Notes under the pieces: generated by a model
The model's database searches: none
Seen by the model: only the letters and a program-made list of their open reading frames with translations
Told to the model about the DNA's origin: nothing
Made by a program: the position numbers and the translations under genes
NCBI GenBank assembly: GCA_030427255.1
Contig: JAUHWY010000028.1
Coordinates: forward strand, 1-36,909
Direction of reading: 5' to 3'
Source of the DNA: Bacteroidia bacterium
GTDB taxonomy: Bacteria > Bacteroidota > Bacteroidia > CAIKAF01
DNA length: 36,909 bases
Shown: positions 1 to 36,545 of the stretch, piece by piece
How the letters are laid out: every line of letters begins with the position of its first letter
How positions within the stretch are numbered: the first letter of the stretch is position 1

Positions 1-333
1 CATCTGCCGGAATGGCAGGTCCTAAGCCCAGTAAAAGCGTTGCTACAGACTTAGTTTTTCCGCCGGATTGGAGGGGTCAGCATGCTCCGGAATATCCAGA
101 CAATGTACAAATCACCGAACAGGCTTTTTATAACAGTCATTTTCCAGGCTTACATACGGTTAAATTTGTGTTACCATGCTGCTGTTGTGCTTCATGTGCC
201 TTGCATATATCTCAAATCAGTGCTCGATTCTAAAACATAGGTGGCACAAGGTGGCGTAACCCATGCAAGATAAGAAAAACCTTGATTTGTGCATCCCTGG
301 TTGTTTTTTGAACCAACAGATTTAGACGATTGA
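1..333. other. Intergenic, no recognisable gene
   Basis: I see no convincing gene here. A 73-codon open frame (12-233, +) has low-complexity Cys/Ala content and no recognisable motif, and the minus-strand frame at 192-386 runs into the tandem repeat. No tRNA, terminator or promoter of the local consensus is evident. The region may be the eroded edge of an accessory block that continues to the left of the window. Confidence 0.5.
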
Positions 334-690
334 GGCAATGCATTTACCTCGCCTTGGTATATCGGGGTTCCAAAAGTGGATAGCATTTCTAGAATTTAGG
401 TTATGCATTGGTGAATAAGTGGATAGCATATATCTCGCTTTGGTATATGAGGGGTCAAGAAATGGATATCATATACCTTGCATGGGTATATTAGGGGGGT
501 AAAAAGGGAATATCATATACCTCGTTTTGGTATATCGGAGGTCAAAAATTGGATAGCATATCTAGAATTTAGGTAATGCATTGGTGAATAAGTGGATATC
601 ATATATCTCGCATTGGTATTTAATTGGTCAAAAAGTGGATAGCATATCCAGAATTTCTATAATGTTTTGGTCAAAAGAGGTATAGCATAT
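334..690. repeat. 43-bp tandem repeat array, about 8 units
   Basis: Units begin at 334, 377, 420, 463, 507, 550, 593 and 636, with a partial ninth at 679. The period is 43 bp except for one unit of 44. Each unit starts with a variant of TGGATAGCATAT. Two subtypes alternate. Type A (units at 334, 420, 507, 593; 463 is divergent) continues as ACCTCGTTTTGGTATATCGG and ends in GGTCAAAAA. Type B (377 and 550, partly 636) continues as TCTAGAATTTAGGTAATGCA and ends in TTGGTGAATAAG. The period is not a multiple of three and no frame stays open, so the array is non-coding. Its function is unknown; it sits downstream of the rloAB pair. Confidence 0.9.
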
Positions 691-876: not shown

Positions 877-1587
877 CTACCCTTCTACATACTTCAAAAG
901 TTCTCTAACCAGTCTGAACACGGTGGTTGATGATTCTTCTCCAGCCGGATTTGTATGGTCAAAGTGATTGTAATTTCTCTCCGCTCTTTCTATGGCAAGT
1001 TCCGCTCTTTTTCTGCTCGTTTTGTCGTCTGTTCCGTCAAGTATTTCAAAAAATTCTTCGTCTATTAATTTGGTGCCCTTGCCATCATAAATTACTTTGA
1101 ATGGCTTAAGGTGTTCGTTTATTTTATCGTTATAGCTGTCTCGGTGCATTCCACCCCCTTGATGGTCGGTAAAGTGCAATATCAGCCAATATTCGAACGA
1201 TTGATTTGAATATGCTACTCCAAAATGGTTGGTCTCCGCTATTTGTATTGCGGCATTGAAATCGTTGTCGTTAAAATCGTCTTTGTCAAATACACACCAA
1301 ACTTGGTCGTAGTTTCCTTCTTGGGCTAAGGCAAGGGCTCTATTTACCAAAGAAACGGTATTAAATCCTTCACCAAGGGTCTTAACTTTTGCAGAAGTAA
1401 TTCTGAATTGATTGAAATAGGAGGGTTCGGTATTTTTACCTTCGCAAACAATAAGAATGAAGGGTTTTTCTGTTAACTCTGGAATTGGTCTTTCCAGGCT
1501 CGGTTCTTTTCTTCGCTGAGCCCTTAACTGTTCAAGATGCTTTTTTTTAGCTGCTTTTTGTTCAGCTTTCTTGTCCTTCATTTTCAT
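877..1587 (-). CDS. rloB: RloB-family TOPRIM-like defence protein
   Basis: This 236-residue protein matches the RloB family (named after restriction-linked ORFs in Campylobacter). Residues 1-35 are a highly charged Lys/Arg/Glu-rich leader. The core begins with a beta-strand ending in an acidic residue (FILIVCEGKNTEPSYF, Glu49), then VWCVFDKDDF (Asp101, Asp103, Asp104) and NQSFEYWLILHF (Glu132). This acidic arrangement resembles TOPRIM nucleases. The gene overlaps the upstream ATPase gene by 26 bp, so the two are almost certainly translated together. By analogy with PARIS and OLD-type pairs, the ATPase may sense a phage trigger and release or activate this nuclease-like partner; that mechanism is inference. 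Met3 (1581) is an alternative start. Confidence 0.82.
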   Translation of the reverse strand: MKMKDKKAEQKAAKKKHLEQLRAQRRKEPSLERPIPELTEKPFILIVCEGKNTEPSYFNQFRITSAKVKTLGEGFNTVSLVNRALALAQEGNYDQVWCVFDKDDFNDNDFNAAIQIAETNHFGVAYSNQSFEYWLILHFTDHQGGGMHRDSYNDKINEHLKPFKVIYDGKGTKLIDEEFFEILDGTDDKTSRKRAELAIERAERNYNHFDHTNPAGEESSTTVFRLVRELLKYVEG

Positions 1588-2896
1588 TTTCCGTCAAGAG
1601 AAAATTTAAGTTATCAAAAAAGCCAAGGAATGGAACTGCACCATATTTTCCCTTGATATAGTTATCTTCAAAGGGCTCTGTTTTTCTTACTTCATCGGAT
1701 TTAAAGTCAGCCAAAGAATAGAGTTTTGCTTCTCCGTATTTATTTTTGTTTGTAAACCAAATTTGGTCTCTTCTGAAAAGCCCTGAACTTAATAAGTTTG
1801 TGTCGTGAGTATTAAAAATCAACTGGGCATTTTTCTTATTAAACTCTTTGGAGTTAAAAAGCAAGGCGATTTTATAAACCAAATTGGGATGAAGTTTTGC
1901 GTCTAATTCATCCACAACCAATGTGTACCCATTTTCAATCACATCAAGAATGGGTCCGGTTAACGCAAAGAATTTTCTAGTTCCGGATGATTCATCATCG
2001 TCTAAAGAAAAACTAATGTTCCCAACAGCTTTTAAGTGCTCATTGTATTTTTTATGCTTTGTCAATACATCATACACATACTCTTGCTTTTCTTCACGAA
2101 CTTCTTTAATGATTTTATCTCTAATTTCTTTGGGCATCCCTATTGGAAGACTATTGATGTCGATTTTTTGCAATTCGATATCTTGAATTCCTAAATCAGC
2201 AGCTTTTAATAATTCTAAAATTTTGATTTTTTGTTCGGGATTTTCTGTTTTCCAAATTGTAAAGCCTTGGTAGCCAAATTCGTTTAACCCGGATAACGTT
2301 TTTAGTTTTTTAAACCAATCCAACACATGGATTGCTGTCTTTTCATTGAATTGAGCGGCTGTGGAAATCAATAAGGCATTGTCTCGAACAAGTCCTTCTT
2401 TAACCACTGTATTTCCTTTGGAGAAACTGCGTTCGTGCGTATGGAAGGTGCTCCCTTCTCTGTAAAAGAGTTCAACTTCTTTTGTTTTTGGTTTATGAAA
2501 AAGCCATTCGGATACAACTCTATCTGTTGTCGCTTCAAAGCCATAGCGATAAAGCACCTTGTTGTGAACAAAAATGATTTCAAATTCAGAGGGTTCGTTT
2601 TCTGTCTGCGTGCTAAGTTTAAATGGCTCAACTTCAATTGTGTCCCCTTTTTGACTTTCCTTTGAGCTATTGATTACGAAATATCGCATAAATGCAAAAG
2701 CATCAAGCAGCTTGCTTTTACCGCTTGCATTTGCGCCATAGATAGCTGCACTTTTAAGAAGTCTCAGACCAAAGTTTTCATTGATTACGATGTTTTCGTG
2801 CTCTCGGGTTTGTTTATCATAGTTAGAAGCAATAAGGCTCAAGGTAGCTTTGTCCTTAAATGTTCTAAAGTTTTTAATTGAAAATTGCAGAAGCAT
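1562..2896 (-). CDS. rloA: RloA-like AAA_15/ABC-type ATPase
   Basis: This 444-residue ATPase is of the SMC/ABC-like AAA_15 type, related to RloA and to the ATPase half of overcoming-lysogenization (OLD) and PARIS systems. The N-terminus MLLQFSIKNFRTF is the usual first strand. Walker A is GANASGKS at 54-61, an ABC-signature-like segment DESSGTRKFF lies at about 301-310, Walker B is LVVDELDAKLHP at 326-337, and the switch histidine is in FNTHDTNLL (His364). The middle (about 80-290) is a less conserved helical insert. It is the first gene of a two-gene minus-strand operon with rloB and has its own promoter at 2927-2960. All nucleotide-binding motifs are intact, so the gene looks functional. 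Its role in phage defence is inferred from family and partner. Confidence 0.85.
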   Translation of the reverse strand: MLLQFSIKNFRTFKDKATLSLIASNYDKQTREHENIVINENFGLRLLKSAAIYGANASGKSKLLDAFAFMRYFVINSSKESQKGDTIEVEPFKLSTQTENEPSEFEIIFVHNKVLYRYGFEATTDRVVSEWLFHKPKTKEVELFYREGSTFHTHERSFSKGNTVVKEGLVRDNALLISTAAQFNEKTAIHVLDWFKKLKTLSGLNEFGYQGFTIWKTENPEQKIKILELLKAADLGIQDIELQKIDINSLPIGMPKEIRDKIIKEVREEKQEYVYDVLTKHKKYNEHLKAVGNISFSLDDDESSGTRKFFALTGPILDVIENGYTLVVDELDAKLHPNLVYKIALLFNSKEFNKKNAQLIFNTHDTNLLSSGLFRRDQIWFTNKNKYGEAKLYSLADFKSDEVRKTEPFEDNYIKGKYGAVPFLGFFDNLNFLLTENENEGQES

Positions 2897-3246: not shown

Positions 3247-3438
3247 AATGCCGCAACGGAGCTTACGCGCCCCGGCGGAGGCCAATTAGCCTGCCGAAGT
3301 GGGGTGCAAAGCCGCCGCCCAACTAAGAGCGACCGGAGGAAGCTCCTTAGTTGGGCTTGGCGGCGTAGCTAGCCCACGAGGCAGCTAATGGCCGGAGACG
3401 GATAAGGCGCCCAAATAAACCGAATGAATTTTTTATTT
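3247..3438. repeat. GC-rich palindromic element, family 1, copy 1
   Basis: This element is about 190 bp and nearly identical in its outer parts to 5459-5648. The outer arms pair imperfectly: GCGCCCCGGCGGAGGCCAAT at 3267 against the complement of GGCCGGAGACGGATAAGGCG near 3390. A strong inner hairpin pairs 3311-3327 (GCCGCCGCCCAACTAAG) with 3346-3364. The loop is AGCGACCGGAGGAAGCT, itself closed by AGC/GCT. It lies downstream of abiEii in an otherwise AT-rich spacer and its base composition is clearly higher in GC than the flanks. Positions 3439-3596, up to abiEii, hold nothing I recognise. Confidence 0.85.
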
Positions 3439-3596: not shown

Positions 3597-4391
3597 TTAA
3601 GCCATTTTCATGGCTAATGATTGTTCCAACCATTCAAAAGCTTTCTCCTGATTGTATTTCATGTTTGGGTTCAATAGCCCTTGCATGTCTCCCGAAAACT
3701 GTGGTGAGTGTTTCTTTAGCTCCATGTTGCGTAAAAACTCTTTTTGAGTTGGTGGCTTGCCAACCACAAACTTCAAATACTCATTATAACAGTGAATAAT
3801 CCTATCAAAATCGAGTGCTGCATGTTGATGTGCATAGTAGAGATCGAATAGGTCTCTACCTTTTTTGCGCTGGTACAATGCTCTAAGTTTGGTGCCCAGG
3901 AGCTCGTTTAGTTGATAGGTGGTAATGTGGCATTTTCCGGAAAACCATTGGCTGTTTACGGAGAAGGGGAAGGAATTCCAACCAAGTAAATTGAAGTGTT
4001 CCCGGCAATTGATCTCTATTTTTAGCCTTAAACGAATGTCTGGCGAGTATTCCGAGTAGAATCGATACAAAATGGTAGTATTATTTGCCTTTGATTTGAC
4101 TACTCTATCTTCTTCAAAAAAAGTGAGGACTTCACCAATTCGCTTTAAAATAGGTTTGATTGGGCCTTCCTTGATCTGGACCAGATCAATGTCTTCGGAA
4201 TATCTTGGTGCAGGATTCAGGTAGAGTTTATGGAGTGCGGTACCTCCGCGAAATGCGAGGTTTTTGCTTAAAAATTCATTGGAGTAAAGTGCTACTAATG
4301 CCCTACATATGATTAGGTCTTGCTCTACTTGTTCGTTGGTAGTCCAAGGGGCATGGTCTTTCCATTGTGCTATGTAGGGTTTGGCAATCAT
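3597..4391 (-). CDS. abiEii: AbiEii-family nucleotidyltransferase toxin
   Basis: This 264-residue protein is the toxin of an AbiE type IV toxin-antitoxin pair, a nucleotidyltransferase. The signature motifs are all present: FRGGTALHKL (48-56), RYSEDIDLV (63-71, with the Asp67-x-Asp69 metal pair), the third acidic strand KIEIN (124-128), and GTKLRALYQRKKGRDLFDL (166-184). Characterised relatives of AbiEii (for example MenT) transfer nucleotides to tRNA acceptor stems and so halt growth. The start codon overlaps the antitoxin stop by 4 bp (ATGA, 4388-4391), which is the normal antitoxin-first order. No truncation is seen. Phage defence or plasmid-type stabilisation are both possible roles. Confidence 0.88.
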   Translation of the reverse strand: MIAKPYIAQWKDHAPWTTNEQVEQDLIICRALVALYSNEFLSKNLAFRGGTALHKLYLNPAPRYSEDIDLVQIKEGPIKPILKRIGEVLTFFEEDRVVKSKANNTTILYRFYSEYSPDIRLRLKIEINCREHFNLLGWNSFPFSVNSQWFSGKCHITTYQLNELLGTKLRALYQRKKGRDLFDLYYAHQHAALDFDRIIHCYNEYLKFVVGKPPTQKEFLRNMELKKHSPQFSGDMQGLLNPNMKYNQEKAFEWLEQSLAMKMA

Positions 4392-5182
4392 AAATCACTA
4401 TCTAAATCTATATTCATGTCCACTTTCCAATGGTTATTCGCTTTGCCGGGCTTTTGATTTTTATTGGGACTTAACAATACCGGGAAAATTTTCTTTTCAT
4501 TGAAATACTCTTGCAATGCACCTAAAAGGTTTTGGTCCATGTGTAGTTCTTGAAAGATAAGCCCTAGCCTTTGAATGGAGCTTATGTGCGGATACCATTG
4601 AAGCAAGTCTTTGATATCCTCAGTAGTGATAGATTCAGCCAACTCCTCCAAAATGGCAAGAATCCTATTGAGGCCACCCATTTTGGTTTGGTAGTGGATC
4701 AAATCAATGGCTGTTAAAGCCGGAGATGAAATATTGAACAAGCCTGCATCTGACTTTCTTTTTGAAATATTTTTTTCAGGCCAATGGCTCGTTGCTTTAA
4801 TACTCAGGTAGTTATTCCCCTTTTTTATATCCCTTATGTTCGGGATTTTTGTCATAAGGTAACTTTGCTGAACCTGTTGGTGACTTGCTCCATGAAAAGC
4901 TGCTGCTGAGAAAAATGCGATATAGTAGGGTTTTCGGATATAAGCAAAGAGTCTATCTACGTAAAGTTCTAAAGGAAGTCTTTCGTATTGCCTATACCTT
5001 GGAGGTAGAATTAAATAGAATCCCTGTCGGAGCGTTATGACCTCTTTTTTTTTGGAAAGGCGCAGGATTTCATGGCGTAAAGCCACATCGGTTTTAGAAA
5101 CTTCTCGTTTTAATTCCTCCCAGGAAAATGCGTATTGTTCGTACGCCAAACATTTATCCACAAAATCCGCAACGCTCCGCAT
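4388..5182 (-). CDS. abiEi: AbiEi-family antitoxin, winged-helix regulator
   Basis: This 264-residue protein fits the AbiEi antitoxin family. Residues about 15-60 form a winged helix-turn-helix (FSWEELKREVSKTDVALRHE, then KKEVITLRQGFYLILPPRY). The next part (65-110, ELYVDRLFAYIRKPYYIAFF) is the characteristic segment linking DNA binding to the C-terminal toxin-neutralising domain. It is the first gene of a two-gene operon with the AbiEii toxin. AbiEi proteins usually repress their own operon from inverted repeats in the promoter. The upstream region has a near-consensus minus-strand -7 box (TATATTTC, 5205-5198) but no good TTTG partner, and I did not find a clear operator. The overlap with the toxin start implies coupled translation. 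Confidence 0.85.
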   Translation of the reverse strand: MRSVADFVDKCLAYEQYAFSWEELKREVSKTDVALRHEILRLSKKKEVITLRQGFYLILPPRYRQYERLPLELYVDRLFAYIRKPYYIAFFSAAAFHGASHQQVQQSYLMTKIPNIRDIKKGNNYLSIKATSHWPEKNISKRKSDAGLFNISSPALTAIDLIHYQTKMGGLNRILAILEELAESITTEDIKDLLQWYPHISSIQRLGLIFQELHMDQNLLGALQEYFNEKKIFPVLLSPNKNQKPGKANNHWKVDMNIDLDSDL

Positions 5183-5458
5183 TTAGTATTTTTATGCGAA
5201 ATATAGTGAAAAGTGGCGATAGGCGCATGCAATTACTAAAGGGGTCAAGAGGAGAGGACTATTACAAGCTAAGAAACATTTAAAGTTTCCCGAGATAGAG
5301 CTCACCATTAAAATATAGAACTCTTACTTTTTTTAGGTTCAAATTATTGGCAGCAGAGCTTGATTGCTGCCGATTTTTGTATTTGGAATAGGGGAGGGGA
5401 GTTTTGGCACTTTTGGTTTGGGGGGTGGAGAATGGGAAAGGAAACCCAATGGATTCAA
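5183..5458. other. Intergenic, with one small hairpin
   Basis: This is the spacer upstream of abiEi. It contains a hairpin GGCAGC (5349-5354) / GCTGCC (5366-5371) followed by GATTTTT on the plus strand, which looks terminator-like but has no plus-strand gene before it. The several overlapping small open frames here match nothing recognisable. Confidence 0.4.
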
Positions 5459-5648
5459 GAATGCCCAACGGAGCTTAACGCGCCCCGGCGGAGGCCAATT
5501 AGCCTGCCGAAGTGGGGTGCACAGCCTCTGCGGGGGCAAGAGCGACCAAAGGAAGCTCCTTGCCCCTGCATAGCGGCGTAGCTAGCCCACAAGGCAGCTA
5601 ATGGCCGGAGACGGATAAGGCGCCCAAATAAACCCAATGAAATTTCTT
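5459..5648. repeat. GC-rich palindromic element, family 1, copy 2
   Basis: This is the near-identical partner of 3247-3438 in the outer 60-70 bp on each side. The inner hairpin (5528-5540 with 5559-5573) has a different sequence, CTGCGGGGGCAAG paired with CTTGCCCCTGCATAG, yet still folds. The loop AGCGACCAAAGGAAGCT (5541-5557) is conserved. It sits just downstream of ptrB. Confidence 0.85.
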
Positions 5649-5715
5649 ATTCCGGTCAACTAAAGGTCTGCATTCCACATTTTTGAGTCGGGATTTTCAT
5701 TGAAAACACAGCGCA

Positions 5716-7767
5716 TCACTGGGCGCAGGCCAACAAAAAGGCGTATTCTAAGGCAACTTCCTCCAATCGGGCATATCGCCCCGTTTTGCCGCCATGGCCG
5801 CTGCTTAGGTCGGTGTGCAAAAGCAGTTTTTTGTCCGAGGTCGACCGCATTGCCCTTAATTTGGCCACCCACTTGGCCGGTTCCCAATACTGTACTTGCG
5901 AGTCGTGCAGTCCGGTGGTGACCAATAGGTTGGGATAATCTTTGGCCTCTACATTATCGTAGGGGGAGTATTTTTCTATCCATGCATAGCCCTCCACATC
6001 TGCAGGGTTTCCCCATTCATTAAACTCGCCGGTAGTTAGGGGTATGCTCGTATCCAACATGGTGGTAAGCACATCCACAAAGGGTACTTGAGCTACCATG
6101 GATCGAAACAGCTGAGGTTCTAAATTCATTACGGCTCCCATGAGCAGACCTCCGGCGCTTCCACCCATGGCATGCACTCGGTCCTTTGCTGCATAGCCAT
6201 GGTCTATGAGCCAATGGGCGCAGTCTATGAAATCTGTAAACGAATTCATTTTGTGTTCCAGCCTGCCCTGTTCGTACCAAGTACGCCCCATTTCTTGTCC
6301 ACCTCTAATGTGGGCAATGGCAAAGGTCCAACCGCGGTTTAGGAGACTTAGGCGGGTAGAGCTGAATCCGCTGTCCATGCTTGCGCCATAGCTCCCATAG
6401 CCGTACAAAAGCAAGGGCCCTTTGGCTTGGTTGGGGTCGCTGCTCTTTTTGTACACAAGACTTATGGGAATTTTTGTTCCGTCTTTGGCCTCGGCCCAAC
6501 AGCGCTCGCTTTGATAGGCTTCCTCTTCAAAACCGCCAAGAACTTCCTGTTTTTTGAGGAGGCGTTCTTCTCCGGTTGCCAAGTTCCATTCTTTGATGGA
6601 TTGAGGACAGGTGAAGGAGGTGAATCCAAACCGAAACCAAACTTGGTTGGCGTCCGGGTTGGTGCCGGCCCAACAGGTTCCTGTGGGGTCTTCCATAGGA
6701 AGTTGCCGTAGGGAGTTTCCATTAAAGTCGAGCAGTCGTAAGCGGCAGTGGGCCTCCCTTCGTTCTTCTACCACTATGCCATGCGTATTGAGGTGCATTC
6801 CCTCCAAAAGGCTTTGATTTTGCTCGGCCAGTATGGTTTCCCAGTCGTTTGGATTTTCTTGCCCCGGCAGGCAGCGGGCTATTTTGAAGTTCTTGGCCTT
6901 CCAATTCGACAACAAGTAAAAGGAGCCTTGAAAATGGTCGGCGTAGTACAGATGCTCTCCTTGGCGAGGAGATAAACGCTTTGGCGCATCGGCCGGTTGC
7001 GTAGCCGAAATATACCACACTTCGGTTTGAAGGGTGCTTATAGAGCTCAGCAGGATATAGGCATCGTCTTGGCTTTTGCTCAAATCTATCTGAAAGGCCT
7101 CGTCTTTTTCCTCAACCACCAACTCCGCTTGGGAAGAGTCAAAAGGTCTACAACGCCAAATTTGATGGGTTCTGAGGGTTTCTTCGTCTTTGCGGTTAAA
7201 GAATAGGGTTTGGTTGTCGGCGGCCCAGGCGTAGGAGCCGTCGGTATTGGCTTCTTCAAAGTCCAACCAGGCTCCGGTGCTTAGGTTTTTCACTTTTAGG
7301 GTGTATTGTCTCCTACCTAATCGGTCTAGGCCTAAGGCCAACCATTGATTGTCGGGACTCACGGTGAGTCCTTGTTCATGGAAATAGTCATGGCCTTGGG
7401 CTTCTTGGTTTACGTCAAGAATGATTTCTTCTTCGTTGCTATCTAAATGGGTTTTTCGGCAGTAAATGGGATATTCTTTTCCCTCCTCATACCGCACATA
7501 GTACCAATATCCGCGCAGGGCGTAGGGCACGGATAAATCGGTAGGTTTTAAGCGGCCTTTCATTTCCTCAAACAACTCTTGTTGCAGGGGGGCATGGGGT
7601 TGCATGACCTTTTCCAGGTAATCGTTTTCGGCTTTGAGGTAGTTGATTACTTCGGGGTTTTCTCGTTCACGGAGCCAATAGTAATCGTCGTTTCTGGTAA
7701 TTCCGTGAACGCTGTGTAGGAAGCTATGTTTTGGAGCCTTAGGTGCTCCATCGGGATACTGATCCAT
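5716..7767 (-). CDS. ptrB: Oligopeptidase B (S9A serine peptidase)
   Basis: This 683-residue protein has the size and layout of oligopeptidase B/protease II, which cleaves short peptides after basic residues. Residues 1-75 are the N-terminal helical segment (DDYYWLRERENPEV). About 75-410 form the beta-propeller that screens substrate size. About 415-683 form the alpha/beta hydrolase domain. The triad is visible: Ser537 in AMGGSAGG, Asp622 in GLHDSQVQYWEPAKW and His658 in SSGHGG. No signal peptide is present, so it is probably cytosolic. A matching -7 box (7785-7778) ends 10 nt before the start codon and supports this start. It is divergent from the esterase operon at 7871. No terminator is seen before the palindromic element that follows. 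Confidence 0.93.
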   Translation of the reverse strand: MDQYPDGAPKAPKHSFLHSVHGITRNDDYYWLRERENPEVINYLKAENDYLEKVMQPHAPLQQELFEEMKGRLKPTDLSVPYALRGYWYYVRYEEGKEYPIYCRKTHLDSNEEEIILDVNQEAQGHDYFHEQGLTVSPDNQWLALGLDRLGRRQYTLKVKNLSTGAWLDFEEANTDGSYAWAADNQTLFFNRKDEETLRTHQIWRCRPFDSSQAELVVEEKDEAFQIDLSKSQDDAYILLSSISTLQTEVWYISATQPADAPKRLSPRQGEHLYYADHFQGSFYLLSNWKAKNFKIARCLPGQENPNDWETILAEQNQSLLEGMHLNTHGIVVEERREAHCRLRLLDFNGNSLRQLPMEDPTGTCWAGTNPDANQVWFRFGFTSFTCPQSIKEWNLATGEERLLKKQEVLGGFEEEAYQSERCWAEAKDGTKIPISLVYKKSSDPNQAKGPLLLYGYGSYGASMDSGFSSTRLSLLNRGWTFAIAHIRGGQEMGRTWYEQGRLEHKMNSFTDFIDCAHWLIDHGYAAKDRVHAMGGSAGGLLMGAVMNLEPQLFRSMVAQVPFVDVLTTMLDTSIPLTTGEFNEWGNPADVEGYAWIEKYSPYDNVEAKDYPNLLVTTGLHDSQVQYWEPAKWVAKLRAMRSTSDKKLLLHTDLSSGHGGKTGRYARLEEVALEYAFLLACAQ

Positions 7768-7777
7768 TCTTTTTTTT

Positions 7778-7785
7778 CAAAAGTA
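7778..7785 (-). promoter_or_regulatory. -7 box of ptrB
   Basis: TACTTTTG on the minus strand is an exact TAnnTTTG match ending 10 nt before the ptrB start. No clear TTTG partner is visible 17-22 nt upstream. Confidence 0.5.
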
Positions 7786-7819
7786 ATGGAATCCGCGGTA
7801 CAGGTAGCATTTCTATGGC

Positions 7820-7850
7820 TTGGCTTTGGCTGCGGCAGCTCGTATCTTTA
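7820..7850 (+). promoter_or_regulatory. Promoter of the esterase operon
   Basis: TTGG (7820-7823), a 19-nt spacer and TATCTTTA (7843-7850) fit the Bacteroidota promoter. Because the box lies downstream of the ATG at 7820, it argues for a coding start at 7871 or 7856 instead. Confidence 0.55.
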
Positions 7851-7870
7851 AGGCCATGGAGGCCAAAGAA

Positions 7871-8509
7871 ATGCGCATTACGGTAAGCCGTCAGGCACGG
7901 ATTTGGACCCTGGGTGGAAACGGGGGCGATGCAGTTATATTTTGGGTTGTGTTGCATGGTTATGGGCAATTGGCTGAGTTTTTTGTCCGGAAGTTTGGGG
8001 CCATTGCATCAGAACATCGCATGATTATTGCTCCTGAAGGACTTAGTCGTTTTTATACCCAGGGCTTTAGCGGTAGGGTAGGGGCCTCATGGATGACCCG
8101 TGAAATGCGGTCCGAGGAGATTGAAGATTACCTCGCTTATTTGGATCGGGTGTACGATGAAATCCCCCCGGAGGCGCAGGTGTATTTGTTGGGTTTTTCT
8201 CAGGGGGCAGCTACGGCCGCGCGTTGGTTCTATTCCGGCCGCCGAAAACTTAAGGGTTTGGTATTGTGGTGCGGAGTTTTCCCCCCAGATTTGCCCGAAC
8301 CGCAGGAGCCGCAGGCTTCCGATTTGCCCCTAATGGTAGTTCGAGCTACAGACGATCCCTTCAACAGTCCGGAAGTGGAAGCGGAAATGAAGCGAAATTT
8401 ACAGAAAGCAACATCATCGCCGAGGTTGTATACCTTTAGTGGAGGACATGACCTTTCGGATAAACCCTTGGTGGAGGTTGTGCGAGAAATGGAAAACTTA
8501 CGGTCATGA
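7871..8509 (+). CDS. Alpha/beta hydrolase, carboxylesterase/phospholipase type
   Basis: About 212 residues from ATG 7871. The fold is that of the small carboxylesterase/phospholipase (YpfH/Abhydrolase_2-like) hydrolases: the oxyanion strand WVVLHGYGQ, the nucleophile elbow LLGFSQGAATAAR, the acid in VVRATDDPFN and the histidine in FSGGHDLSD. There is no signal peptide, so it is probably cytoplasmic. The natural substrate cannot be told from sequence. I chose 7871 because a promoter box ends at 7850; 7856 is an alternative and 7820 would lie inside the promoter. The stop codon overlaps the start of the permease gene by 4 bp, so they form an operon with the glycosyltransferase. Confidence 0.82.
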   Translation: MRITVSRQARIWTLGGNGGDAVIFWVVLHGYGQLAEFFVRKFGAIASEHRMIIAPEGLSRFYTQGFSGRVGASWMTREMRSEEIEDYLAYLDRVYDEIPPEAQVYLLGFSQGAATAARWFYSGRRKLKGLVLWCGVFPPDLPEPQEPQASDLPLMVVRATDDPFNSPEVEAEMKRNLQKATSSPRLYTFSGGHDLSDKPLVEVVREMENLRS

Positions 8510-9708
8510 GCTCAAATCAGAAAGATCCTTTAATTAGGTGGTTGCGGCAGCCCTCTCTTTGGCTTCCCATTCTCTTGTTTGCTTCCTTTCTTATTGGTTT
8601 CACCTTACTTTTTCCCAATGTTTTGGCCTACCTCATTTTAGGGGCTGTGTTTGCATTGATCGGAAGTCCGGTGTTTAATGTATTGGCTAAAGTTTCTATT
8701 TCTAATCGAAGTCCGGGAAAGAACCTAAGGGCATTGCTTGCTGTACTGGCCATTTTGCTGGGTATGGCTGTAGTAGGATTAGGGCTTGCTCCTTTGGTCT
8801 GGCAACAGGCGCGGGTACTTTCCGAAATCGAAACCGAACAAGTGCTGCATAACCTGGAGGGGCCCATTGAAGAAATAGCTGCTGAGCTGGAGCAAAGTCC
8901 TTTGGGGAAATACCTTCAAGACTCCCTTTTGCAGGAGCCGTCTTCAGCCAAAGCCGCACCGACCGGAGAGCAAAGCAGCGAAGGGTTAAAGCCAAAGCTG
9001 ATCACCTTTTTGAATCGGTTTCTGAATTTCGCTAGTGTGGGGAATATTTTGGGTTCAGTTGTGGGCGTATTTTCCAACCTTTTGCTAACGCTAGCTTCCT
9101 CTTTGTTCGTTTGCTTTTTCTTAATTCGTGATAGAGACAGGTTATTGCCTTTTTTGTTGGGCTTGGTGCCAAAGAACATTCGACCCACCATACAAGAAAC
9201 CTTGTCTTTAAGCCGCAAATTGCTCACCAGTTACTTTTTGGGGATATTGCTTCAGCTTTCCATTGTTATTCTATTAGAAATGTTTGGTCTAATGTTGGTG
9301 GGCGTAGGGCCGGGTTTGGCGCTTACCATTGCTGTGTTTGCGGGGCTGTTCAACATCATTCCTTATGTAGGCCCCATAATTGGTGGCGCCATTGGAGTAG
9401 GGCTTGGACTTTCGGCCAACCTTCATTTGGATGCTTACCAGGAGCTGATTCCTCTTTTGCTTCGCATGGGTCTTGTTTTCTTTATTGTTCAGCAAATTGA
9501 TGGTTTTTTGTTGCAACCCTTGATTTTTTCAAAAAGGGTTAATGCGCATCCCCTCGAGATATTTTTGATAGTGTTTATAGGTGGCAGTTTAGCAGGAATT
9601 GCCGGAATGATATTTGCTGTGCCGGTGTATACGGTTGCCCGCGTGCTTGTAAAGGAGTCTTGGAAGTCGCTTACCGAGGCCTATGCAAACGAAGAACAAA
9701 AGTCCTAA
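8506..9708 (+). CDS. AI-2E family transporter / permease
   Basis: This 400-residue membrane protein belongs to the AI-2E transporter family (PerM/YhhT/TqsA-like). The N-terminal part has paired hydrophobic helices (about 17-45, 68-95), followed by a soluble segment (about 100-165) and a block of C-terminal helices. The family's conserved stretch is visible as FNIIPYVGPIIGGAIGV (about 282-298), with DGFLLQPLIFSKRVNAHPLE after it. Substrates in the family vary (autoinducer-2 export, Na+/H+ antiport), so none is assigned. It overlaps the upstream esterase (ATGA) and the downstream glycosyltransferase by 26 bp, which indicates tight translational coupling. Confidence 0.88.
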   Translation: MSSNQKDPLIRWLRQPSLWLPILLFASFLIGFTLLFPNVLAYLILGAVFALIGSPVFNVLAKVSISNRSPGKNLRALLAVLAILLGMAVVGLGLAPLVWQQARVLSEIETEQVLHNLEGPIEEIAAELEQSPLGKYLQDSLLQEPSSAKAAPTGEQSSEGLKPKLITFLNRFLNFASVGNILGSVVGVFSNLLLTLASSLFVCFFLIRDRDRLLPFLLGLVPKNIRPTIQETLSLSRKLLTSYFLGILLQLSIVILLEMFGLMLVGVGPGLALTIAVFAGLFNIIPYVGPIIGGAIGVGLGLSANLHLDAYQELIPLLLRMGLVFFIVQQIDGFLLQPLIFSKRVNAHPLEIFLIVFIGGSLAGIAGMIFAVPVYTVARVLVKESWKSLTEAYANEEQKS

Positions 9709-10729
9709 GAGGGTGGCTCAAAAACGCATTTATTATGGGGTCTTAGATTGGGGACTTGGACATGCCACCAGGTCAAGCCCTATCATTGAGGCACTGCTTA
9801 TTCAAGGTTGCGAAGTGCACTTGTTTGGCAATGGCCTTTCCGGTCAATGGCTGCAACGCCGCTTTCCTCAATGTACTTTTCATGAGTTGCCCGGCCCTCA
9901 GATTAGCTATCCTTCTCGAGGAAATAGGTTTTGGTGGTCTATGGCTCAACAAGCTCCTGCTTTAAGCAGGTGGATTCGAAGGGACGAGGCCTTTCTTGCC
10001 TCTTTGCCTAGGCCGGACGCTACGATTTCTGACCATCGTCCGGGGTTCAAAATACGGAACGTGCCATCCGTATTGGTGGCGCATCAGCTCAATTTGCCCT
10101 TTCCTGCGGTGCTTAGGCCGTTTCAGCGCGTTTACCACCGCCTTATGAGTGGTTTTACCCACTATTGGGTTCCTGATTTGCCTCAAGAGCAGCTTTCAGC
10201 TAAGCTTAGTAAAGGACCTTTTCCTGCGGTTTGCATAGGCTATTTATCGGCGTGTAAACCAATAGCCACGAATAGCTTAGGTCCGCCTTTATGGTTGATG
10301 TCCGGCCCGGAACCCCAACGAAGTATTTGGGAAGCCGAGGGACTAAAGCAGCTTGCGCCTCATGTGCCTAAACTGCGCTGGGTACGGGGTACCAACCGAC
10401 CAAAACCATCAGGTATACCCGAAGCTTGGGAAGTGGTGGACTTAGCATTACCAAAGCAGCTGAACCCTTGGTTGCAAGAGGCTCCTTGGGTCTGGTGCCG
10501 ATCGGGCTACTCCAGCTTAATGGACCTGCGTACGCTAGGAAAAAGAGCATTTTTAAAGCCTACCCCCGGACAAGCCGAGCAAGAACTGCTGGCCCGATGG
10601 CACCACGGCCAATTTGGTTGGCTTTGCCAAGACCCCAATCCTGCCTTACTCGGCTCCTGCCCCAATCCTGCCATAGGTTCGGAGAAGCTTCTGAACCAAG
10701 CGCTGCAAAATCTTCTTAACTCAATTTAA
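9683..10729 (+). CDS. Glycosyltransferase, GT-B fold (MurG/MJ1255-like)
   Basis: This 348-residue protein resembles GT-B glycosyltransferases of the MJ1255/Glyco_tran_28 group common in Bacteroidota. The N-terminal motif YGVLDWGLGHATRSSPIIEA (about 18-37) is the family's Gly-rich acceptor-side loop. The segment ISDHRPGFKIRNVPSVLVAH and the late CRSGYSSLMDL (about 271-281) correspond to the interdomain and nucleotide-sugar-binding regions. No membrane helix or signal peptide is present. The start ATG lies within the end of the permease gene, so it is the third gene of an operon. The sugar donor and acceptor are unknown. The downstream gap (10730-10858) shows no terminator. Confidence 0.75.
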   Translation: MQTKNKSPKRVAQKRIYYGVLDWGLGHATRSSPIIEALLIQGCEVHLFGNGLSGQWLQRRFPQCTFHELPGPQISYPSRGNRFWWSMAQQAPALSRWIRRDEAFLASLPRPDATISDHRPGFKIRNVPSVLVAHQLNLPFPAVLRPFQRVYHRLMSGFTHYWVPDLPQEQLSAKLSKGPFPAVCIGYLSACKPIATNSLGPPLWLMSGPEPQRSIWEAEGLKQLAPHVPKLRWVRGTNRPKPSGIPEAWEVVDLALPKQLNPWLQEAPWVWCRSGYSSLMDLRTLGKRAFLKPTPGQAEQELLARWHHGQFGWLCQDPNPALLGSCPNPAIGSEKLLNQALQNLLNSI

Positions 10730-10858
10730 GGACGATTAGAGAACCATAACCACTTCAAAAGCCTTACTTTGTAGATTGGTACAAATAGTGCCTTGGTTTG
10801 CATACGTTGCATGAAGGAAACACCCTAAAAATCAAACGGGCATCCTCGTTAGACTATG

Positions 10859-10866
10859 TATCTTTG
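10859..10866 (+). promoter_or_regulatory. -7 box of the S41 protease gene
   Basis: TATCTTTG is an exact match to TAnnTTTG, ending 17 nt before the ATG at 10884. No convincing TTTG lies upstream. Confidence 0.5.
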
Positions 10867-10883
10867 ACCGATAAAATAGACCT

Positions 10884-12503
10884 ATGAAGAAAAGCGGTGT
10901 CTGGATTGTTCTTCCTCTACTCATGGCCATTTCCATAATTCTTGGAGTTTTTTTAGGGCAAGCCATAGGAGGACAACTCCAAACAGAAGAGGGAAAAGTC
11001 TTTGGTTTTGCACCTAAAGACGACCATAAAATCCAGCGATTGTTAAGCCTTATCCGCGATAATTACGTAGATACCATCGACACCGATGCCCTAACCGACA
11101 AAGCTATTGAGTCGCTTATGGCAGGGCTTGATCCGCATTCTGCGTATTGGCCTCCGGTAGATAATGCGGCCATGGAAGAAGAAATGGACGGTTCTTTTCA
11201 GGGCATTGGAATACAATTTGATGTGGTTTCAGACACCATTGTTGTGGTGGCACCCATACCCGGAGGTCCTTCCGAACGTATGGGCATACGCGCCGGAGAC
11301 AGGATTGTAGAAATCGAGGACGAAAATGTCGCCGGTATAGGTATTGAACGCGACAAAGTGGTCAAAAGCCTAAGAGGCGAAAAGGGAACCAAAGTTAAAG
11401 TAGGCATCTTGAGGCGTGGCCTTACCAAGCCTTTTGATGTGACTATTGTTCGCGACGATATTCCTCTCTACACGGTAGACGCGAGTTATATGATTACTCC
11501 AACCACCGGGTATATTCGCTTAAGTCGCTTTGCCGGAACCAGCCACGAGGAAGTACGGATGGCTTTAGATAGCCTCAAAAAGACAGGTATGTCCAATTTG
11601 ATTTTTGACCTGAGAGGAAACCCGGGAGGAGTGCTTGATGGCGCCGTGGAAATTGCCGATGAGTTTTTGCCCAACCGACAAATGATTGTGTATACCGAAG
11701 GCCGCATGCGGCGCCGGGAAGTGTATCGTGCTTCGCAAGGTGGAAGCTTCGAACGCGGAGATTTGGCTATCCTTATTGACGAAGGCAGTGCCAGCGCCTC
11801 TGAAATTGTGGCAGGCGCCATTCAAGACCACGACCGAGGCTTAGTTATTGGACGTAGAAGCTTTGGAAAGGGTTTGGTTCAAGAACATATTTCTCTCAAC
11901 GATGCCTCTGCCATTACTTTAACTGTGGCAAGATATTATACCCCTTCCGGTCGTTCCATTCAACGTCCATACGACGATGGTGCCGAAGCCTATTACCAAG
12001 AAGCTATGGACCATATTGGGGCATTGGACACCCTAGAGGGGCCGGATTCCCTTAAGTTTAAAACAGATAAGGGACGGACCGTTTATGGAGGCGGAGGTAT
12101 TTATCCGGACGTATACATGCCTATGGATACTTCTTATTTCTCCGATATGCTGCTGGAGGTTTCTGCTCGTGGTTTGTTGTTTGATTTTGGATTTGCCTTT
12201 GCCGACACTTACCGCAAAGCCATGCTTAAGGAGTTTCCTACAGCCGACGACTTTTTAAGTGGCCGCGTGGGACAGCCGGGGCCCTGGATCACTAAACTCC
12301 AAAGCGAACTAAAGGTCTATCTTTCTAAGAACCTAAGCAGTTTTTCGGCCAAAGACTGGGAGAAATCGGCAGACCAAATCCGCCTAAGGGCCTTAGCAAC
12401 CGTTGCTCGAAATGTGTGGGGCAATCAAGCTTGGTACAAGGTTACCAACCAAGAAGATCCCATCATTAAACGTGCCCTTTTGGAGCTGAAAGCTGCTTCT
12501 TAA
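10884..12503 (+). CDS. C-terminal processing protease, S41 family
   Basis: This 539-residue protein is a Ctp/Prc-type periplasmic serine protease. Residues 6-28 are a signal or membrane anchor. After a short helical region, a PDZ domain spans about 105-190 (GIGIQFDV, GGPSERMGIRAGDRIVEI). The S41 core follows. By alignment of spacing with known Ctp proteases (Ser-Lys 25 apart, Lys-Gln 4 apart), the catalytic residues are Ser304 in GSASASEI, Lys329 in SFGKG and Gln333. Residues about 360-539 form a C-terminal domain common in Bacteroidota versions. Such enzymes trim C-termini of envelope proteins. The gene has its own promoter and the short gap after it suggests that the next gene is separately transcribed. 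Confidence 0.92.
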   Translation: MKKSGVWIVLPLLMAISIILGVFLGQAIGGQLQTEEGKVFGFAPKDDHKIQRLLSLIRDNYVDTIDTDALTDKAIESLMAGLDPHSAYWPPVDNAAMEEEMDGSFQGIGIQFDVVSDTIVVVAPIPGGPSERMGIRAGDRIVEIEDENVAGIGIERDKVVKSLRGEKGTKVKVGILRRGLTKPFDVTIVRDDIPLYTVDASYMITPTTGYIRLSRFAGTSHEEVRMALDSLKKTGMSNLIFDLRGNPGGVLDGAVEIADEFLPNRQMIVYTEGRMRRREVYRASQGGSFERGDLAILIDEGSASASEIVAGAIQDHDRGLVIGRRSFGKGLVQEHISLNDASAITLTVARYYTPSGRSIQRPYDDGAEAYYQEAMDHIGALDTLEGPDSLKFKTDKGRTVYGGGGIYPDVYMPMDTSYFSDMLLEVSARGLLFDFGFAFADTYRKAMLKEFPTADDFLSGRVGQPGPWITKLQSELKVYLSKNLSSFSAKDWEKSADQIRLRALATVARNVWGNQAWYKVTNQEDPIIKRALLELKAAS

Positions 12504-12588
12504 GTTTTTTTTATCCGGGTACTTTTAGCTAATTTACCTGCTGTTAACAGGTCGTTAGATCTTTGTTATTTGATCTTTAATTTCTATT

Positions 12589-13818
12589 ATGAAGATTATC
12601 AGCACTCTTAGCTTCTGCTGTGCCGCCTTTATCTCGGTACGTGCCCAATCCGAATGCGATGGAGGACGTTACCAGACTCCTATTTTTCAGCAGGTAAGCG
12701 TAAGTTCCGACATTTCCTATGGGCAAGCTGTGAACAGCGACAATTTTACCGTAGATCTGCTGTGCGATATTTACGAGCCCGCAGGGGACAATGCAACCAA
12801 TCGGCCTGTGGTCATTATGGCCCACGGCGGTAGTTTTTATGCCGGAAATAAAACAGCCGATAGTTCTGTTGTCTATTTCTGTCGAGAGCTGGCAAAGCAT
12901 GGCTACCTTACCGTTTCCATGAATTATAGATTGGAGAATCCCCTAAACATTTTCACCAGCTCAGACATCGAAAAAACCTTCCTTGAAGCGGTCTTCAGAG
13001 CGGTGCAAGACCAAAAGGCGCTTATTCGCTTCCTCAGAAAGTCGGTGGCAGAGCAAAACAACCCCTACGGCATTGATCCAAACCGCATTATTGTGGGGGG
13101 AAACTCCGCAGGAGCCATCTTGTCGTTACATAACGCCTATTTAGATGATGCGGCAAAAGTGCCGTCTAAAATCGATACAGCAGCCCTGGGTGGCCTGGAA
13201 GGAAGCTCAGGAAATCCGGGCTATTCTTCCATTCCACAAGCGGTGGTAAACATTTGCGGAGCCTTGGGTGATTCGGTTTGGCTCGAAAGCGGAGACCAGC
13301 CCTTTGTTTCCCTTCATGGCGATCAAGACGAGGTGGTGCCCCACAATACCGGAGTGGCCGATCCCGGAATTCCTATTATGACCGTTGACGGTTCCGCTTC
13401 CCTTAAGCTCAGAGCAGACAATGAAGGTGTAAACAATGCCTTTTATTTGCTAAAAGGGGCGGAGCACTCACCCCAAAACGGCAGCAATGCTTATATGGAC
13501 ACGGTATTTACCTTTGCCCGTGACTTCCTTGCCGATTTGGTGTGCAACGGAATCCTAGACATCCATCCCATTGCAGAAACGAGCACCCCTGTTCCTTTTC
13601 CAAACCCCAGCTCTAGTGGGTCATTCTTGGCCATCGACCAAGGGTGGACCGGGCATTTGGCTCTTTTCGACGCCTTGGGACGCCTTTGCTTAGAACGTAG
13701 GCTCGATCAACCGGTGGGCTCGGTAAGTCTACCTCAGAACCTAAAGCCCGGCGTTTATTGGTTGAAACATACCCAACCCAACGGTGCCGTAAAGCACCAT
13801 AAATTGCTGATTCAATGA
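12589..13818 (+). CDS. Secreted esterase/lipase with T9SS sorting domain
   Basis: 409 residues. A signal peptide (1-19) is cleaved after VRA. The body is an alpha/beta hydrolase of the esterase/lipase type: oxyanion motif MAHGGSFYAG (78-87), nucleophile GGNSAGAIL (Ser173), acid in HGDQDEVVP (Asp247) and His293 in GAEHSP. From about 333 to the end is a type A T9SS sorting domain (PFPNPSSSGSFLAI, LFDALGRL, LKPGVYWLKH), so the protein should be exported through T9SS and anchored or released at the surface. A near-consensus -7 box GATCTTTG lies at 12558-12565. The stop overlaps the next gene's start by 4 bp. The substrate is unknown. Confidence 0.88.
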   Translation: MKIISTLSFCCAAFISVRAQSECDGGRYQTPIFQQVSVSSDISYGQAVNSDNFTVDLLCDIYEPAGDNATNRPVVIMAHGGSFYAGNKTADSSVVYFCRELAKHGYLTVSMNYRLENPLNIFTSSDIEKTFLEAVFRAVQDQKALIRFLRKSVAEQNNPYGIDPNRIIVGGNSAGAILSLHNAYLDDAAKVPSKIDTAALGGLEGSSGNPGYSSIPQAVVNICGALGDSVWLESGDQPFVSLHGDQDEVVPHNTGVADPGIPIMTVDGSASLKLRADNEGVNNAFYLLKGAEHSPQNGSNAYMDTVFTFARDFLADLVCNGILDIHPIAETSTPVPFPNPSSSGSFLAIDQGWTGHLALFDALGRLCLERRLDQPVGSVSLPQNLKPGVYWLKHTQPNGAVKHHKLLIQ

Positions 13819-14279
13819 CACGCCTTTGGCTTTTGGGCTTCTTTGCAATAAGTATGGCTTGTGGAAATCCCTCGCCTGAGGGAGAGAAACCAATACATGA
13901 ACAAGCGTCCGGCCAAACCGCCGGCTTAAATCCAAACGGAGATTCCGAGTTGGCTTTGCTTATGCGTGAAATGACTGATTTTATGCGTCAAAGCCTGGAT
14001 AGCCTTCAAAAAGAATCGCCCGTACCCAAAGTTCCGGACAAGCTTCAGGGCTTAACTACAGCCGATGCCACCGAAGGAATGATTCAAGACCGAAACCACT
14101 TCAACGGTTTTGCAAGTATGTGGTTGAGTAAGGCGAAAACCTTAGACACGGCCCAATCCCTTGCCTCCCGGCGCGAAGCATACCAAAGCCTGCAGCAAAG
14201 TTGCTTAAGTTGCCACAGTCAATACTGCCAAGGTCCTATTCCCATGATTCAAGGGCTTAGCCTTCCTGAAAACGAGTAG
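13815..14279 (+). CDS. Lipoprotein with C-terminal CxxCH haem motif
   Basis: 154 residues. The N-terminus is a short hydrophobic stretch ending in a lipobox-like ISMAC (Cys16), followed by a Pro/Glu-rich linker. The C-terminal half is predicted helical and carries a single CLSCH at 130-134, the motif for covalent haem c attachment. A CxxCH near the C-terminus of a helical domain is the layout of class II cytochromes (c'/c556), but overall similarity is too weak to assign a family. It overlaps the esterase gene (ATGA), so the pair is co-translated. It is convergent with accC, only 3 bp away, and no terminator separates them. Confidence 0.65.
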   Translation: MTRLWLLGFFAISMACGNPSPEGEKPIHEQASGQTAGLNPNGDSELALLMREMTDFMRQSLDSLQKESPVPKVPDKLQGLTTADATEGMIQDRNHFNGFASMWLSKAKTLDTAQSLASRREAYQSLQQSCLSCHSQYCQGPIPMIQGLSLPENE

Positions 14280-14282
14280 GAA

Positions 14283-15761
14283 TTAACTCCTTTTAATCTG
14301 CCAAGCAGAGGCCTGCTGTTGGTGGGGACGTTGGCCGGAGGCTTCTTCTTTGGCATACACCAAAGAGGCTCCTAAAGCCGCAGCCAGACCCTCTTGCAAA
14401 GCACTCACCTGTTCCCGCATTTTTTCCGGACTAAAGTGCTCTTCTACAAACCGTGTAGTAAAACTACCGTCTCTAAACACCGGGTGGTCCATTACAAATA
14501 AGCAAAACTCCAAGGTGGTGGCAATACCGTCTACTTCGTAATGGGCAATTGCTTCTTTCATGGCCTCAATGGCCTCTTCGCGATTTGACCCATGCACAAT
14601 AAGCTTTGCCAACATAGGGTCATAAAAGATGGGAACATCCATTCCCTCCAAAAAGCCGCTATCAACCCGAATGCCGGGCCCCAGAGGCTCTCTATATCTG
14701 CGCAGCCGGCCTATGTCCGGTAAGAAATTGTTTACGGGATCTTCGGCATACACGCGCACTTCAATGGCGTGTCCTTGAATCTGCAAATCCTCTTGGCGCA
14801 TGCTCAGCGCTTCGCCCCGCGCTACCCGAAATTGCCACTCCACCAAGTCTAAGCCGGTAATCATTTCAGTTACCGGGTGTTCAACCTGCAACCGGGTGTT
14901 CATCTCAAGAAAGTAGTAAGCACCGTCTTGAAAAATAAATTCAACGGTTCCCGCCCCTTCGTATTGGCAGGCTTTGGCGACCTCTACGGCACTTTGCCCC
15001 ATGGCCTTGCGCAATTCCGGCGTTAACACCGCCGAAGGTGCTTCCTCTATTACTTTTTGGTGACGTCTTTGTACCGAACATTCCCGTTCAAACAAGTGTA
15101 GCACATTGCCATGACGGTCTGCCAAAACTTGAATTTCAATATGTTTGGCTTTGCCTAAATACTTTTCTATGAATACACTTCCGTCTCCAAAGGAGTTTTC
15201 GGCCTCCGAAACGGCACGCTGCAAGTGTTCTTCAAAGTCGGCGGCTTGCTCTACCACACGCATACCTTTGCCTCCACCACCGGCCGAGGCTTTAATAAGC
15301 ACTGGAAATCCAATTTCGGCAGCAATTTTTTTAGCTTCTTCTTTATCGCTAATGGCCTCCTCGGTGCCGGGTACCATGGGCACTTGATAGGCTTTTACAG
15401 CCGCTTTTGCGCCCAATTTGGAACCCATAACCTCCATGGCTTCCGGAGAGGGACCTATAAAACAAATGCCTGATTCGGTTACTTTACGGGCAAATACCGG
15501 ATTTTCCGATAAAAAACCATAGCCCGGATGAATCCCATCTACGCCCAAGCGCTGAGCAGCTTCCAAGATTTTGTCCATCACCAAATACGATTGGTTCGAG
15601 GGAGCCGGACCAAGGCAAACCGATTCATCGGCGTAAGCTACATGAGGGGCGTTTTTGTCGGCTTCCGAATACACAGCCACTGTAGATATTCCCATCTTGC
15701 GACAGGTTTTCATAATGCGCAAAGCAATCTCTCCGCGGTTGGCAATTAGAATTTTTTGCAT
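14283..15761 (-). CDS. accC: Acetyl-CoA carboxylase biotin carboxylase subunit
   Basis: 492 residues. This is the ATP-grasp enzyme that carboxylates biotin with bicarbonate and ATP. The order is normal: N-terminal domain (MQKILIANRGEIALRI, 1-17), the Gly-rich ATP loop KASAGGGGKGMRV (157-169), metal and substrate residues in YYFLEMNTRLQVEHPV (282-297), and the C-terminal domain (about 335-450). It is longer than the usual roughly 450 residues by a tail of about 40 residues that is Ala/Gln/Ser-rich. No accB (biotin carrier) gene is adjacent, which leaves open whether it serves acetyl-CoA carboxylase or an acyl-CoA carboxylase such as propionyl-CoA carboxylase. Citrate synthase lies upstream on the same strand behind a terminator. 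Confidence 0.88.
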   Translation of the reverse strand: MQKILIANRGEIALRIMKTCRKMGISTVAVYSEADKNAPHVAYADESVCLGPAPSNQSYLVMDKILEAAQRLGVDGIHPGYGFLSENPVFARKVTESGICFIGPSPEAMEVMGSKLGAKAAVKAYQVPMVPGTEEAISDKEEAKKIAAEIGFPVLIKASAGGGGKGMRVVEQAADFEEHLQRAVSEAENSFGDGSVFIEKYLGKAKHIEIQVLADRHGNVLHLFERECSVQRRHQKVIEEAPSAVLTPELRKAMGQSAVEVAKACQYEGAGTVEFIFQDGAYYFLEMNTRLQVEHPVTEMITGLDLVEWQFRVARGEALSMRQEDLQIQGHAIEVRVYAEDPVNNFLPDIGRLRRYREPLGPGIRVDSGFLEGMDVPIFYDPMLAKLIVHGSNREEAIEAMKEAIAHYEVDGIATTLEFCLFVMDHPVFRDGSFTTRFVEEHFSPEKMREQVSALQEGLAAALGASLVYAKEEASGQRPHQQQASAWQIKRS

Positions 15762-15777
15762 GGGACGAATTTAACAC

Positions 15778-15804
15778 AAAAAAAGGGGCAGTTTCCCGCC
15801 CCTT
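15778..15804 (-). terminator. Intrinsic terminator of gltA
   Basis: On the minus strand, a GGGGC/GCCCC stem (802-798 with 789-785 in the 15,7xx-15,8xx range) is followed by seven T residues. It is 20 nt after the gltA stop codon. Confidence 0.75.
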
Positions 15805-15823
15805 GCTGTTAGGTTTTATAGCT

Positions 15824-17110: not shown

Positions 17111-17254
17111 GGATTCTTTATGGTGTTAATTGGTGAATTATTATGAGAACATTCGTCGGTGCCGAAAGTAATAAATTAAGGTGATTTTTCAGCTACACTT
17201 CTGCCATATTAAATACGTATTTTCAAAATATGTTCACGTTTTCCATTTTTTTTT

Positions 17255-17402
17255 GGGGGCCTGAACCGGGTCCTCCCTGCTGGTCCTCAACGGAGGGCTA
17301 AGGCAGGCTATGGCTCCGGGGTCCCCCAAAGGATTGGGGGCCTCCTCGCTTCATGCCTGCCTAAACCCTCCGTTTCCGGGCCATTCGTTCGGCCCCTGGC
17401 CC
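17255..17402. repeat. GC-rich palindromic element, family 2, copy 1
   Basis: About 148 bp. The main stem pairs 17289-17308 (AACGGAGGGCTAAGGCAGGC) with 17355-17375. An inner hairpin CCCCCAA/TTGGGGG lies at 17323-17340, and the outer arms GGGGCCTGAAC and GTTCGGCCCC pair. The unpaired blocks (GTCCTCAA, CTCCGGGGT, CTCCTCGCTTCATG, TTCGTTCGG) recur in 29482-29630. It occupies the gltA-rpsO spacer. The remaining bases, 17111-17254, hold only the gltA upstream region and an oligo-T tract. Confidence 0.8.
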
Positions 17403-17452
17403 AATCCATCTTCCAAAAATGCAGCGCATGGTTTTTATTGGAAGTATATTTT

Positions 17453-36471: not shown

Positions 36472-36545
36472 GCCTATTCGCGTTTTGGCTTGCCACCTTT
36501 TTCGCGCTAAAGCCACACCCCATGGATACCTTTGCGGCAAACACC

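What the first reader, a model, noticed from the sequence alone, without database searches (positions are those of the whole stretch)
334..690. 43-bp tandem array with two unit types
Eight units keep a 43-bp period very exactly (one is 44) although their sequence has drifted, and two subtypes (A and B) are interleaved, with B units at 377 and 550 four units apart. Period conservation despite drift, at about four helical turns (43/10.5), suggests phased protein binding or a higher-order duplication. There are no CRISPR-like constant repeats or unique spacers.
Basis: seen in the sequence. Interest (0 to 1): 0.6.

Follow-up and report, generated by a model that had tools for sequence, protein, structure and literature searches.

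The report
Dispersed 43-bp repeat arrays, defence islands
The window holds one of six related non-coding arrays of 43-base repeats that this bacterium has copied, as blocks, into gene islands rich in anti-phage genes; the spacing of the repeats is kept almost perfectly although their letters have drifted, which hints that a protein reads them.

Summary
The array is real (window 334-690); its natural period is an 86-bp A/B dimer. The genome carries six arrays of one family and a sister species (G004) keeps a two-unit remnant. Of 53 units scored, 51 are exactly 43 bp. The two 44-bp units sit at the same position of the window and C53 arrays, which align without a gap over 319 bp at 78% identity: arrays were copied between loci as blocks. 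Three share a G-rich leader. In the five loci compared, the array lies in DNA missing from the sister species, near abortive-infection, toxin-antitoxin or restriction genes. It is not translated, has no conserved RNA fold, and was not found in the other collections searched. The closest known kind is BrickBuilt of Porphyromonas (dispersed leader plus minisatellite), but terminal inverted repeats were not found, so I do not file it as a MITE. Best reading: a dispersed minisatellite element whose pitch is held by protein binding (the binding is inferred). Helical phasing is not shown; predicted curvature is strong in only two of six arrays.

The parts
334..690 (+). whole 43-bp tandem array (orientation named by the leader-bearing copies elsewhere)
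334..376 (+). degenerate first unit; its right part (356-383) matches the end of the leader of the C51 copy
377..419 (+). unit type B
420..462 (+). unit type A
463..506 (+). unit type A, 44 bp; a 44-bp unit is at the same place in the C53 array
507..549 (+). unit type A
550..592 (+). unit type B
593..635 (+). unit type A
636..678 (+). unit type B (degenerate)
679..690 (+). core of a last, broken-off unit
877..1587 (-). RloB / AbiLii-like gene, transcribed toward the array
1562..2896 (-). AAA ATPase, AbiLi-like
3256..3418 (+). copy of a dispersed about 165-bp G+C-rich repeat (separate family)
3597..4391 (-). AbiEii toxin family gene
4388..5182 (-). AbiEi antitoxin family gene
5467..5631 (+). 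second copy of the 165-bp repeat, at the edge of the island: synteny with sister species G004 starts at 5437

Best explanation
The array is one copy of a non-coding, dispersed minisatellite element: a G-rich leader (present in three of six copies) followed by about 7 to 11 full units of 43 bp, mostly alternating A and B. Shown: six copies in one genome, block-wise copying between loci, a kept pitch, no gene across it, no conserved RNA fold, location in accessory islands. Inferred: the pitch is kept because a DNA-binding protein contacts the near-invariant core TGGATAGCATAT (and the weaker block GGTAATGCATTG) once per unit and binds neighbouring A/B units together; the copies spread by recombination between repeats, or by a borrowed transposase, within hypervariable defence islands, where they can also act as shared homology.
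For: Six loci in G000 and a remnant in G004. Register: window 372-690 aligns gap-free to C53 5643-5961 (oriented coordinates) at 78%, including the shared 44-bp unit; shifted by one unit the identity falls to 61-63%. Other gap-free blocks: C3-C39 381 bp at 78%, C39-C44 338 bp at 84%, C53-C3 296 bp at 87%. Indel control: 15 gap openings per 137 substitutions in non-coding DNA of the window against its G004 orthologue predicts about 7.6 for the 69 substitutions seen, against 0. 40 of 47 neighbouring units alternate, 0 of 20,000 permutations as high (the arrays are copies of each other, so this p is too small). Leader of C51 and C44 98% alike over 81 bp, C39 81%; no complete leader elsewhere in G000 or G004. 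All-against-all BLAST of the six loci lists no other similarity at the array edges. Conservation is 1.5 to 2.0 bits at 11 of the 12 core positions and 1.0 at position 3.
Against: No binding protein is identified. Predicted curvature is outstanding in only two of six arrays. The strict pitch could also follow from recent copying plus a low indel rate. An alignment of 4-unit segments with cheap gaps placed 376 gap openings in 2,533 substitutions; I read those as artefacts because gap-free diagonals of even identity exist, but it is a result against me. No mobilising enzyme is linked to the arrays.
Confidence: 0.5

Rival explanations
1. A neutral minisatellite element: copied by recombination or transposition, with no function; the pitch looks kept only because copying is recent and length changes are rare in it.
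For: Found only in one species plus a remnant in its sister, sited in repeat-rich accessory DNA, right ends broken at different points of the unit, the G004 copy decayed to about two units.
Against: Substitution divergence of 13 to 22% without a net indel in the blocks against 15 gap openings per 137 substitutions in nearby non-coding DNA; very uneven conservation within the unit.
Confidence: 0.3
2. A centromere-like or silencing platform that works like sopC of the F plasmid: tandem 43-bp repeats loaded by a ParB-type protein, left over from or used by a mobile replicon.
For: Same unit length and a comparable plan, an inverted repeat inside the unit: in A units the six pairs of TATACC-N7-GGTATA are kept in 13 to 29 of 29 units. 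PMC6238139 describes twelve 43-bp repeats with ten 16-bp inverted repeats bound by ParB (passages).
Against: The neighbouring proteins scanned gave no ParA or ParB hit. B units lack the dyad. Six arrays would be odd for a centromere. The equal unit length may be chance.
Confidence: 0.1
3. The array is transcribed as the 3' untranslated tail of the defence operon and acts as an RNA (for example a regulator or decoy).
For: In all six loci the gene on the right side is transcribed toward the array. No terminator-like site on the minus strand between 877 and 690. The plus strand of the window array folds better than 99 of 100 shuffles.
Against: Consensus fold of 19 dimers: 4 pairs, none with compensatory change, -0.57 kcal/mol. 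The better-folding strand is not the one the operon would read; the minus strand is matched by 6 of 100 shuffles. No Rfam match in the window.
Confidence: 0.06
4. The array is a recombination or attachment site that lets defence modules be exchanged, in the manner of an integron cassette site.
For: Two arrays in the same orientation (C51 and C44) appear to flank a type III restriction-modification operon whose parts lie on contigs C44 and C51. The C39 array abuts a fragment like the C-terminal end of an integron integrase.
Against: The unit has no attC core sites by eye. No integron integrase over the family cut-off was found in G000 or G004. No clean empty site and no convincing target-site duplication were seen.
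Confidence: 0.04

Closest known systems
BrickBuilt minisatellite-MITE of Porphyromonas gingivalis (PMC4596501)
   Same: Bacteroidota; tandem repeat without spacers, imperfect units, a leader on one side, dispersed in many intergenic places, narrow host range, leader missing in some copies (abstract and sections 5 and 9 read).
   Different: 23-nt units against 43-bp A/B dimers; BrickBuilt has leader and tail with small terminal inverted repeats, and 4-base target duplications are reported at two loci; here no common tail, no terminal inverted repeats, no convincing duplication. Its listed neighbours are mostly ordinary chromosomal genes; here the arrays sit in accessory islands with defence genes.
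sopC (parS) of the F plasmid
   Same: Tandem repeats of 43 bp with an inverted repeat inside the unit (passages of PMC6238139).
   Different: As I recall, sopC is a single array beside sopA and sopB with one motif; here two alternating unit types, six places, and no ParA/ParB hit among the neighbours scanned.
CRISPR arrays
   Same: Tandem plan with a leader on one side.
   Different: No constant repeat and no unique spacers; no cas gene among the neighbours scanned, where only regulators (WYL, CasR-like, CARF-like helix-turn-helix ends) and a PDDEXK model tagged Cas-associated were hit.

Membership tests
BrickBuilt-type minisatellite MITE | tandem minisatellite core without spacers | tested here: met
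BrickBuilt-type minisatellite MITE | multiple intergenic copies in one genome | tested here: met
   six loci
BrickBuilt-type minisatellite MITE | common leader and common tail | tested here: not met
   leader in C51, C44, C39 only; no shared tail
BrickBuilt-type minisatellite MITE | terminal inverted repeats | tested here: not met
   best exact inverted match 5 or 6 bases in each of six loci, reached by 79 to 193 of 200 shuffles
BrickBuilt-type minisatellite MITE | target-site duplication | tested here: inconclusive
   C3 shows an 8-base direct repeat 20 and 27 bases outside the array ends (0 of 200 shuffles); the other five show none above chance
sopC-type centromere | 43-bp tandem repeats with an inverted repeat per unit | tested here: inconclusive
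   period met; the dyad is present in A units only
sopC-type centromere | linked ParA/ParB genes | tested here: not met
   Pfam scans of neighbours, (not every neighbouring ORF was scanned)
CRISPR array | conserved repeats with unique spacers | tested here: not met
integron attC site | attC core sites and a functional integron integrase | tested here: inconclusive
   no TIGR02249 match over the cut-off in G000 or G004; attC cores judged by eye only

The most novel reading that the evidence does not exclude
The arrays are loading platforms for an unknown sequence-specific protein that coats A/B dimers cooperatively, marks or silences newly gained defence islands, and at the same time gives those islands shared, same-orientation homology through which defence modules can be swapped, as the pair of arrays around the type III restriction operon suggests.
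Probability: 0.15. Interest if true: 0.65.

Novelty: new variant of a known kind. Interest (0 to 1): 0.4.

Why it matters
If the kept pitch reflects a binding protein, these arrays would be a marker by which a Bacteroidota-like cell recognises or organises its accessory defence islands, and a simple pull-down would find that protein. If they are neutral, they are still a clear example of a tandem array that travels as a block, which shows that unit number and order at one locus can be inherited from another locus rather than grown in place.

Tried and rejected
Helical phasing or curvature as a general property: only two of six arrays stand out (wedge angles recalled). RNA structure: rejected. 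Protein coding: rejected (units carry stops and 43 is not a multiple of three). Weak model hits in three other genomes of the class (G061, G080, G088): looked at and not tandem arrays. Own integrase or transposase: none linked. The one reverse transcriptase gene of G000 (C13) is of a defence RT type by PADLOC, so I do not take it as the mobiliser of the arrays. Naming the organism: not achieved; the best matches of a neighbouring peptidase in named genomes are only about 52% identical. The continuation of the interrupted repeats at C39 and C53 on the far side of the array was sought and not found. The indel test with cheap gaps was unhelpful and was replaced by gap-free diagonals.

Full report
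Observation. The array is present as described. One search finds eight cores at spacings 43, 43, 44, 43, 43, 43, 43 in 365-690, and one search finds period 43 with a stronger fit at 86. The unit order from 377 is B A A A B A B. A consensus: TGGATAGCATATACCTCGCTTGGGTAATGCATTGGTCAAAAAG. B consensus: TGGATAGCATATCCGGAATTTAGGTAATGCATTG plus a variable tail. Both are read from the units; positions 27-33 of A come in two forms.

It is a family. The own genome (G000, 3.2 Mb, 57 contigs) holds the same repeat at C53, C3, C39, C44 and C51. A sequence profile of 19 dimers finds no further array in G000 and only a remnant of about two units in G004 among 16 genomes of the order. Among 395 genomes of the class, 5 have a match: G000, G004 and three single weak matches without tandem repeats.

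Arrays travel as blocks. The window array and the C53 array align without gaps over 319 bp with 69 substitutions, and the single 44-bp unit of each falls on the other. A shift of one unit lowers identity from 78% to 61-63% (the shifted values are slightly low because of the 44-bp unit). C3-C39, C39-C44 and C53-C3 also share gap-free blocks of about 300 to 380 bp. Three arrays begin with the same G-rich leader (C51 and C44 98% alike, C39 81%). The arrays end at different points of the unit, and beyond leader and array the edges share nothing that BLAST lists.

The pitch is kept. Of 53 units scored, 51 are 43 bp and the two 44s look like one event. As a control I aligned the window's shared part (5437-17404) with its orthologue in G004: non-coding DNA shows 137 substitutions and 15 gap openings, coding DNA 1,497 and 9. 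At the non-coding rate the 69 substitutions between the window and C53 arrays should bring about 7.6 gaps; none is seen, and identity is even along the block (0.72 to 0.82 in 40-bp bins). My own arithmetic gives a Poisson chance near 5e-4. The block was chosen as the best gap-free diagonal, which favours this result, but it spans 319 of the 357 bases of the window array. Against it stands the cheap-gap alignment, which placed 376 gaps in 2,533 substitutions; I hold those to be artefacts of aligning tandem DNA with cheap gaps.

Surroundings. Genes on the right of all six arrays are transcribed toward the array. Window: AbiL pair (RloB and an AAA ATPase) and an AbiE pair. C3: DarTG and an AbiD-like gene. 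C53: an M41-peptidase-like protein, WYL, a YhcG nuclease (PDC-S02), HigB and an AbiE pair. C44: a type III methyltransferase about 3 kb to the left; the three genes on its right have no Pfam match. C51: a fragment of a type III restriction enzyme. C39: the two genes on its right have no Pfam or PADLOC match, and one on its left has a weak match to a candidate defence family (PDC-M72A). I did not measure how common such genes are elsewhere in this genome, so the link with defence is an observation, not an enrichment test. For the five loci compared with G004 (C39, C3, C53, window, C44) the array lies in DNA without an orthologue at that place there; C51 was not compared.

C44 ends inside a restriction gene whose remainder seems to begin C51, with a repeated sequence at the cut that also opens the window contig. 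If the contigs are neighbours, two arrays of the same orientation flank one type III restriction operon. This is inferred from reading the two ends, not from an assembly.

Function. No gene covers the arrays. The consensus fold of the dimers has four pairs and no compensatory change. A units hold an imperfect dyad TATACC-N7-GGTATA, B units do not. Predicted curvature is beyond all 100 shuffles only for the window and C53 (angles recalled from memory). The sharply conserved core and kept pitch fit protein binding best, but no protein is named.

Known kinds. BrickBuilt of P. gingivalis (abstract and sections 5 and 9 read) is the nearest. Its terminal inverted repeats and common tail were tested here and not met. 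sopC of F shares the unit length (passages read). Paper searches for such an array in this group found none (search listings only apart from the papers named); the library lacks most subscription papers.

Noticed in passing
window 3256-3418 and 5467-5631; L014 8887-9050; dozens of places in G000 and G004: A G+C-rich repeat of about 165 bp with inner inverted symmetry (by eye) is dispersed through both genomes and lies at the edges of several variable islands.
   Followed up: partly
G000 C5:6400, C42:19714, C42:35164, C44:18462, C35:69465, C39:17716; G004 many: Short fragments resembling only the C-terminal end (about residues 249-315) of integron integrases are scattered, often beside the 165-bp repeat. 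In copies at C35 and C39:830 the related repeat breaks at a CTAACGG that looks by eye like an attC core.
   Followed up: partly
G000 C44 end and C51 start (L146, L147); window 1-111: A type III restriction gene seems split by a repeated, IS-like sequence whose end also opens the window contig (97% over 111 bp).
   Followed up: partly
L145 1789-3932 (G000 C13:131288-133431): A defence-type reverse transcriptase with a following gene of no PADLOC match; the best PADLOC models are RT-Protease XI and RT-TIR XII although the gene is short (417 aa).
   Followed up: no
window 36545-36812: A 125-bp tandem repeat, 2.1 copies, at the right end of the window.
   Followed up: no
L012 3884-5929 (C53): A 681-aa protein with a ClpB small domain and an M41 peptidase domain beside a WYL regulator, with no PADLOC match; its stop codon lies about 10 bp from the array.
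   Followed up: no
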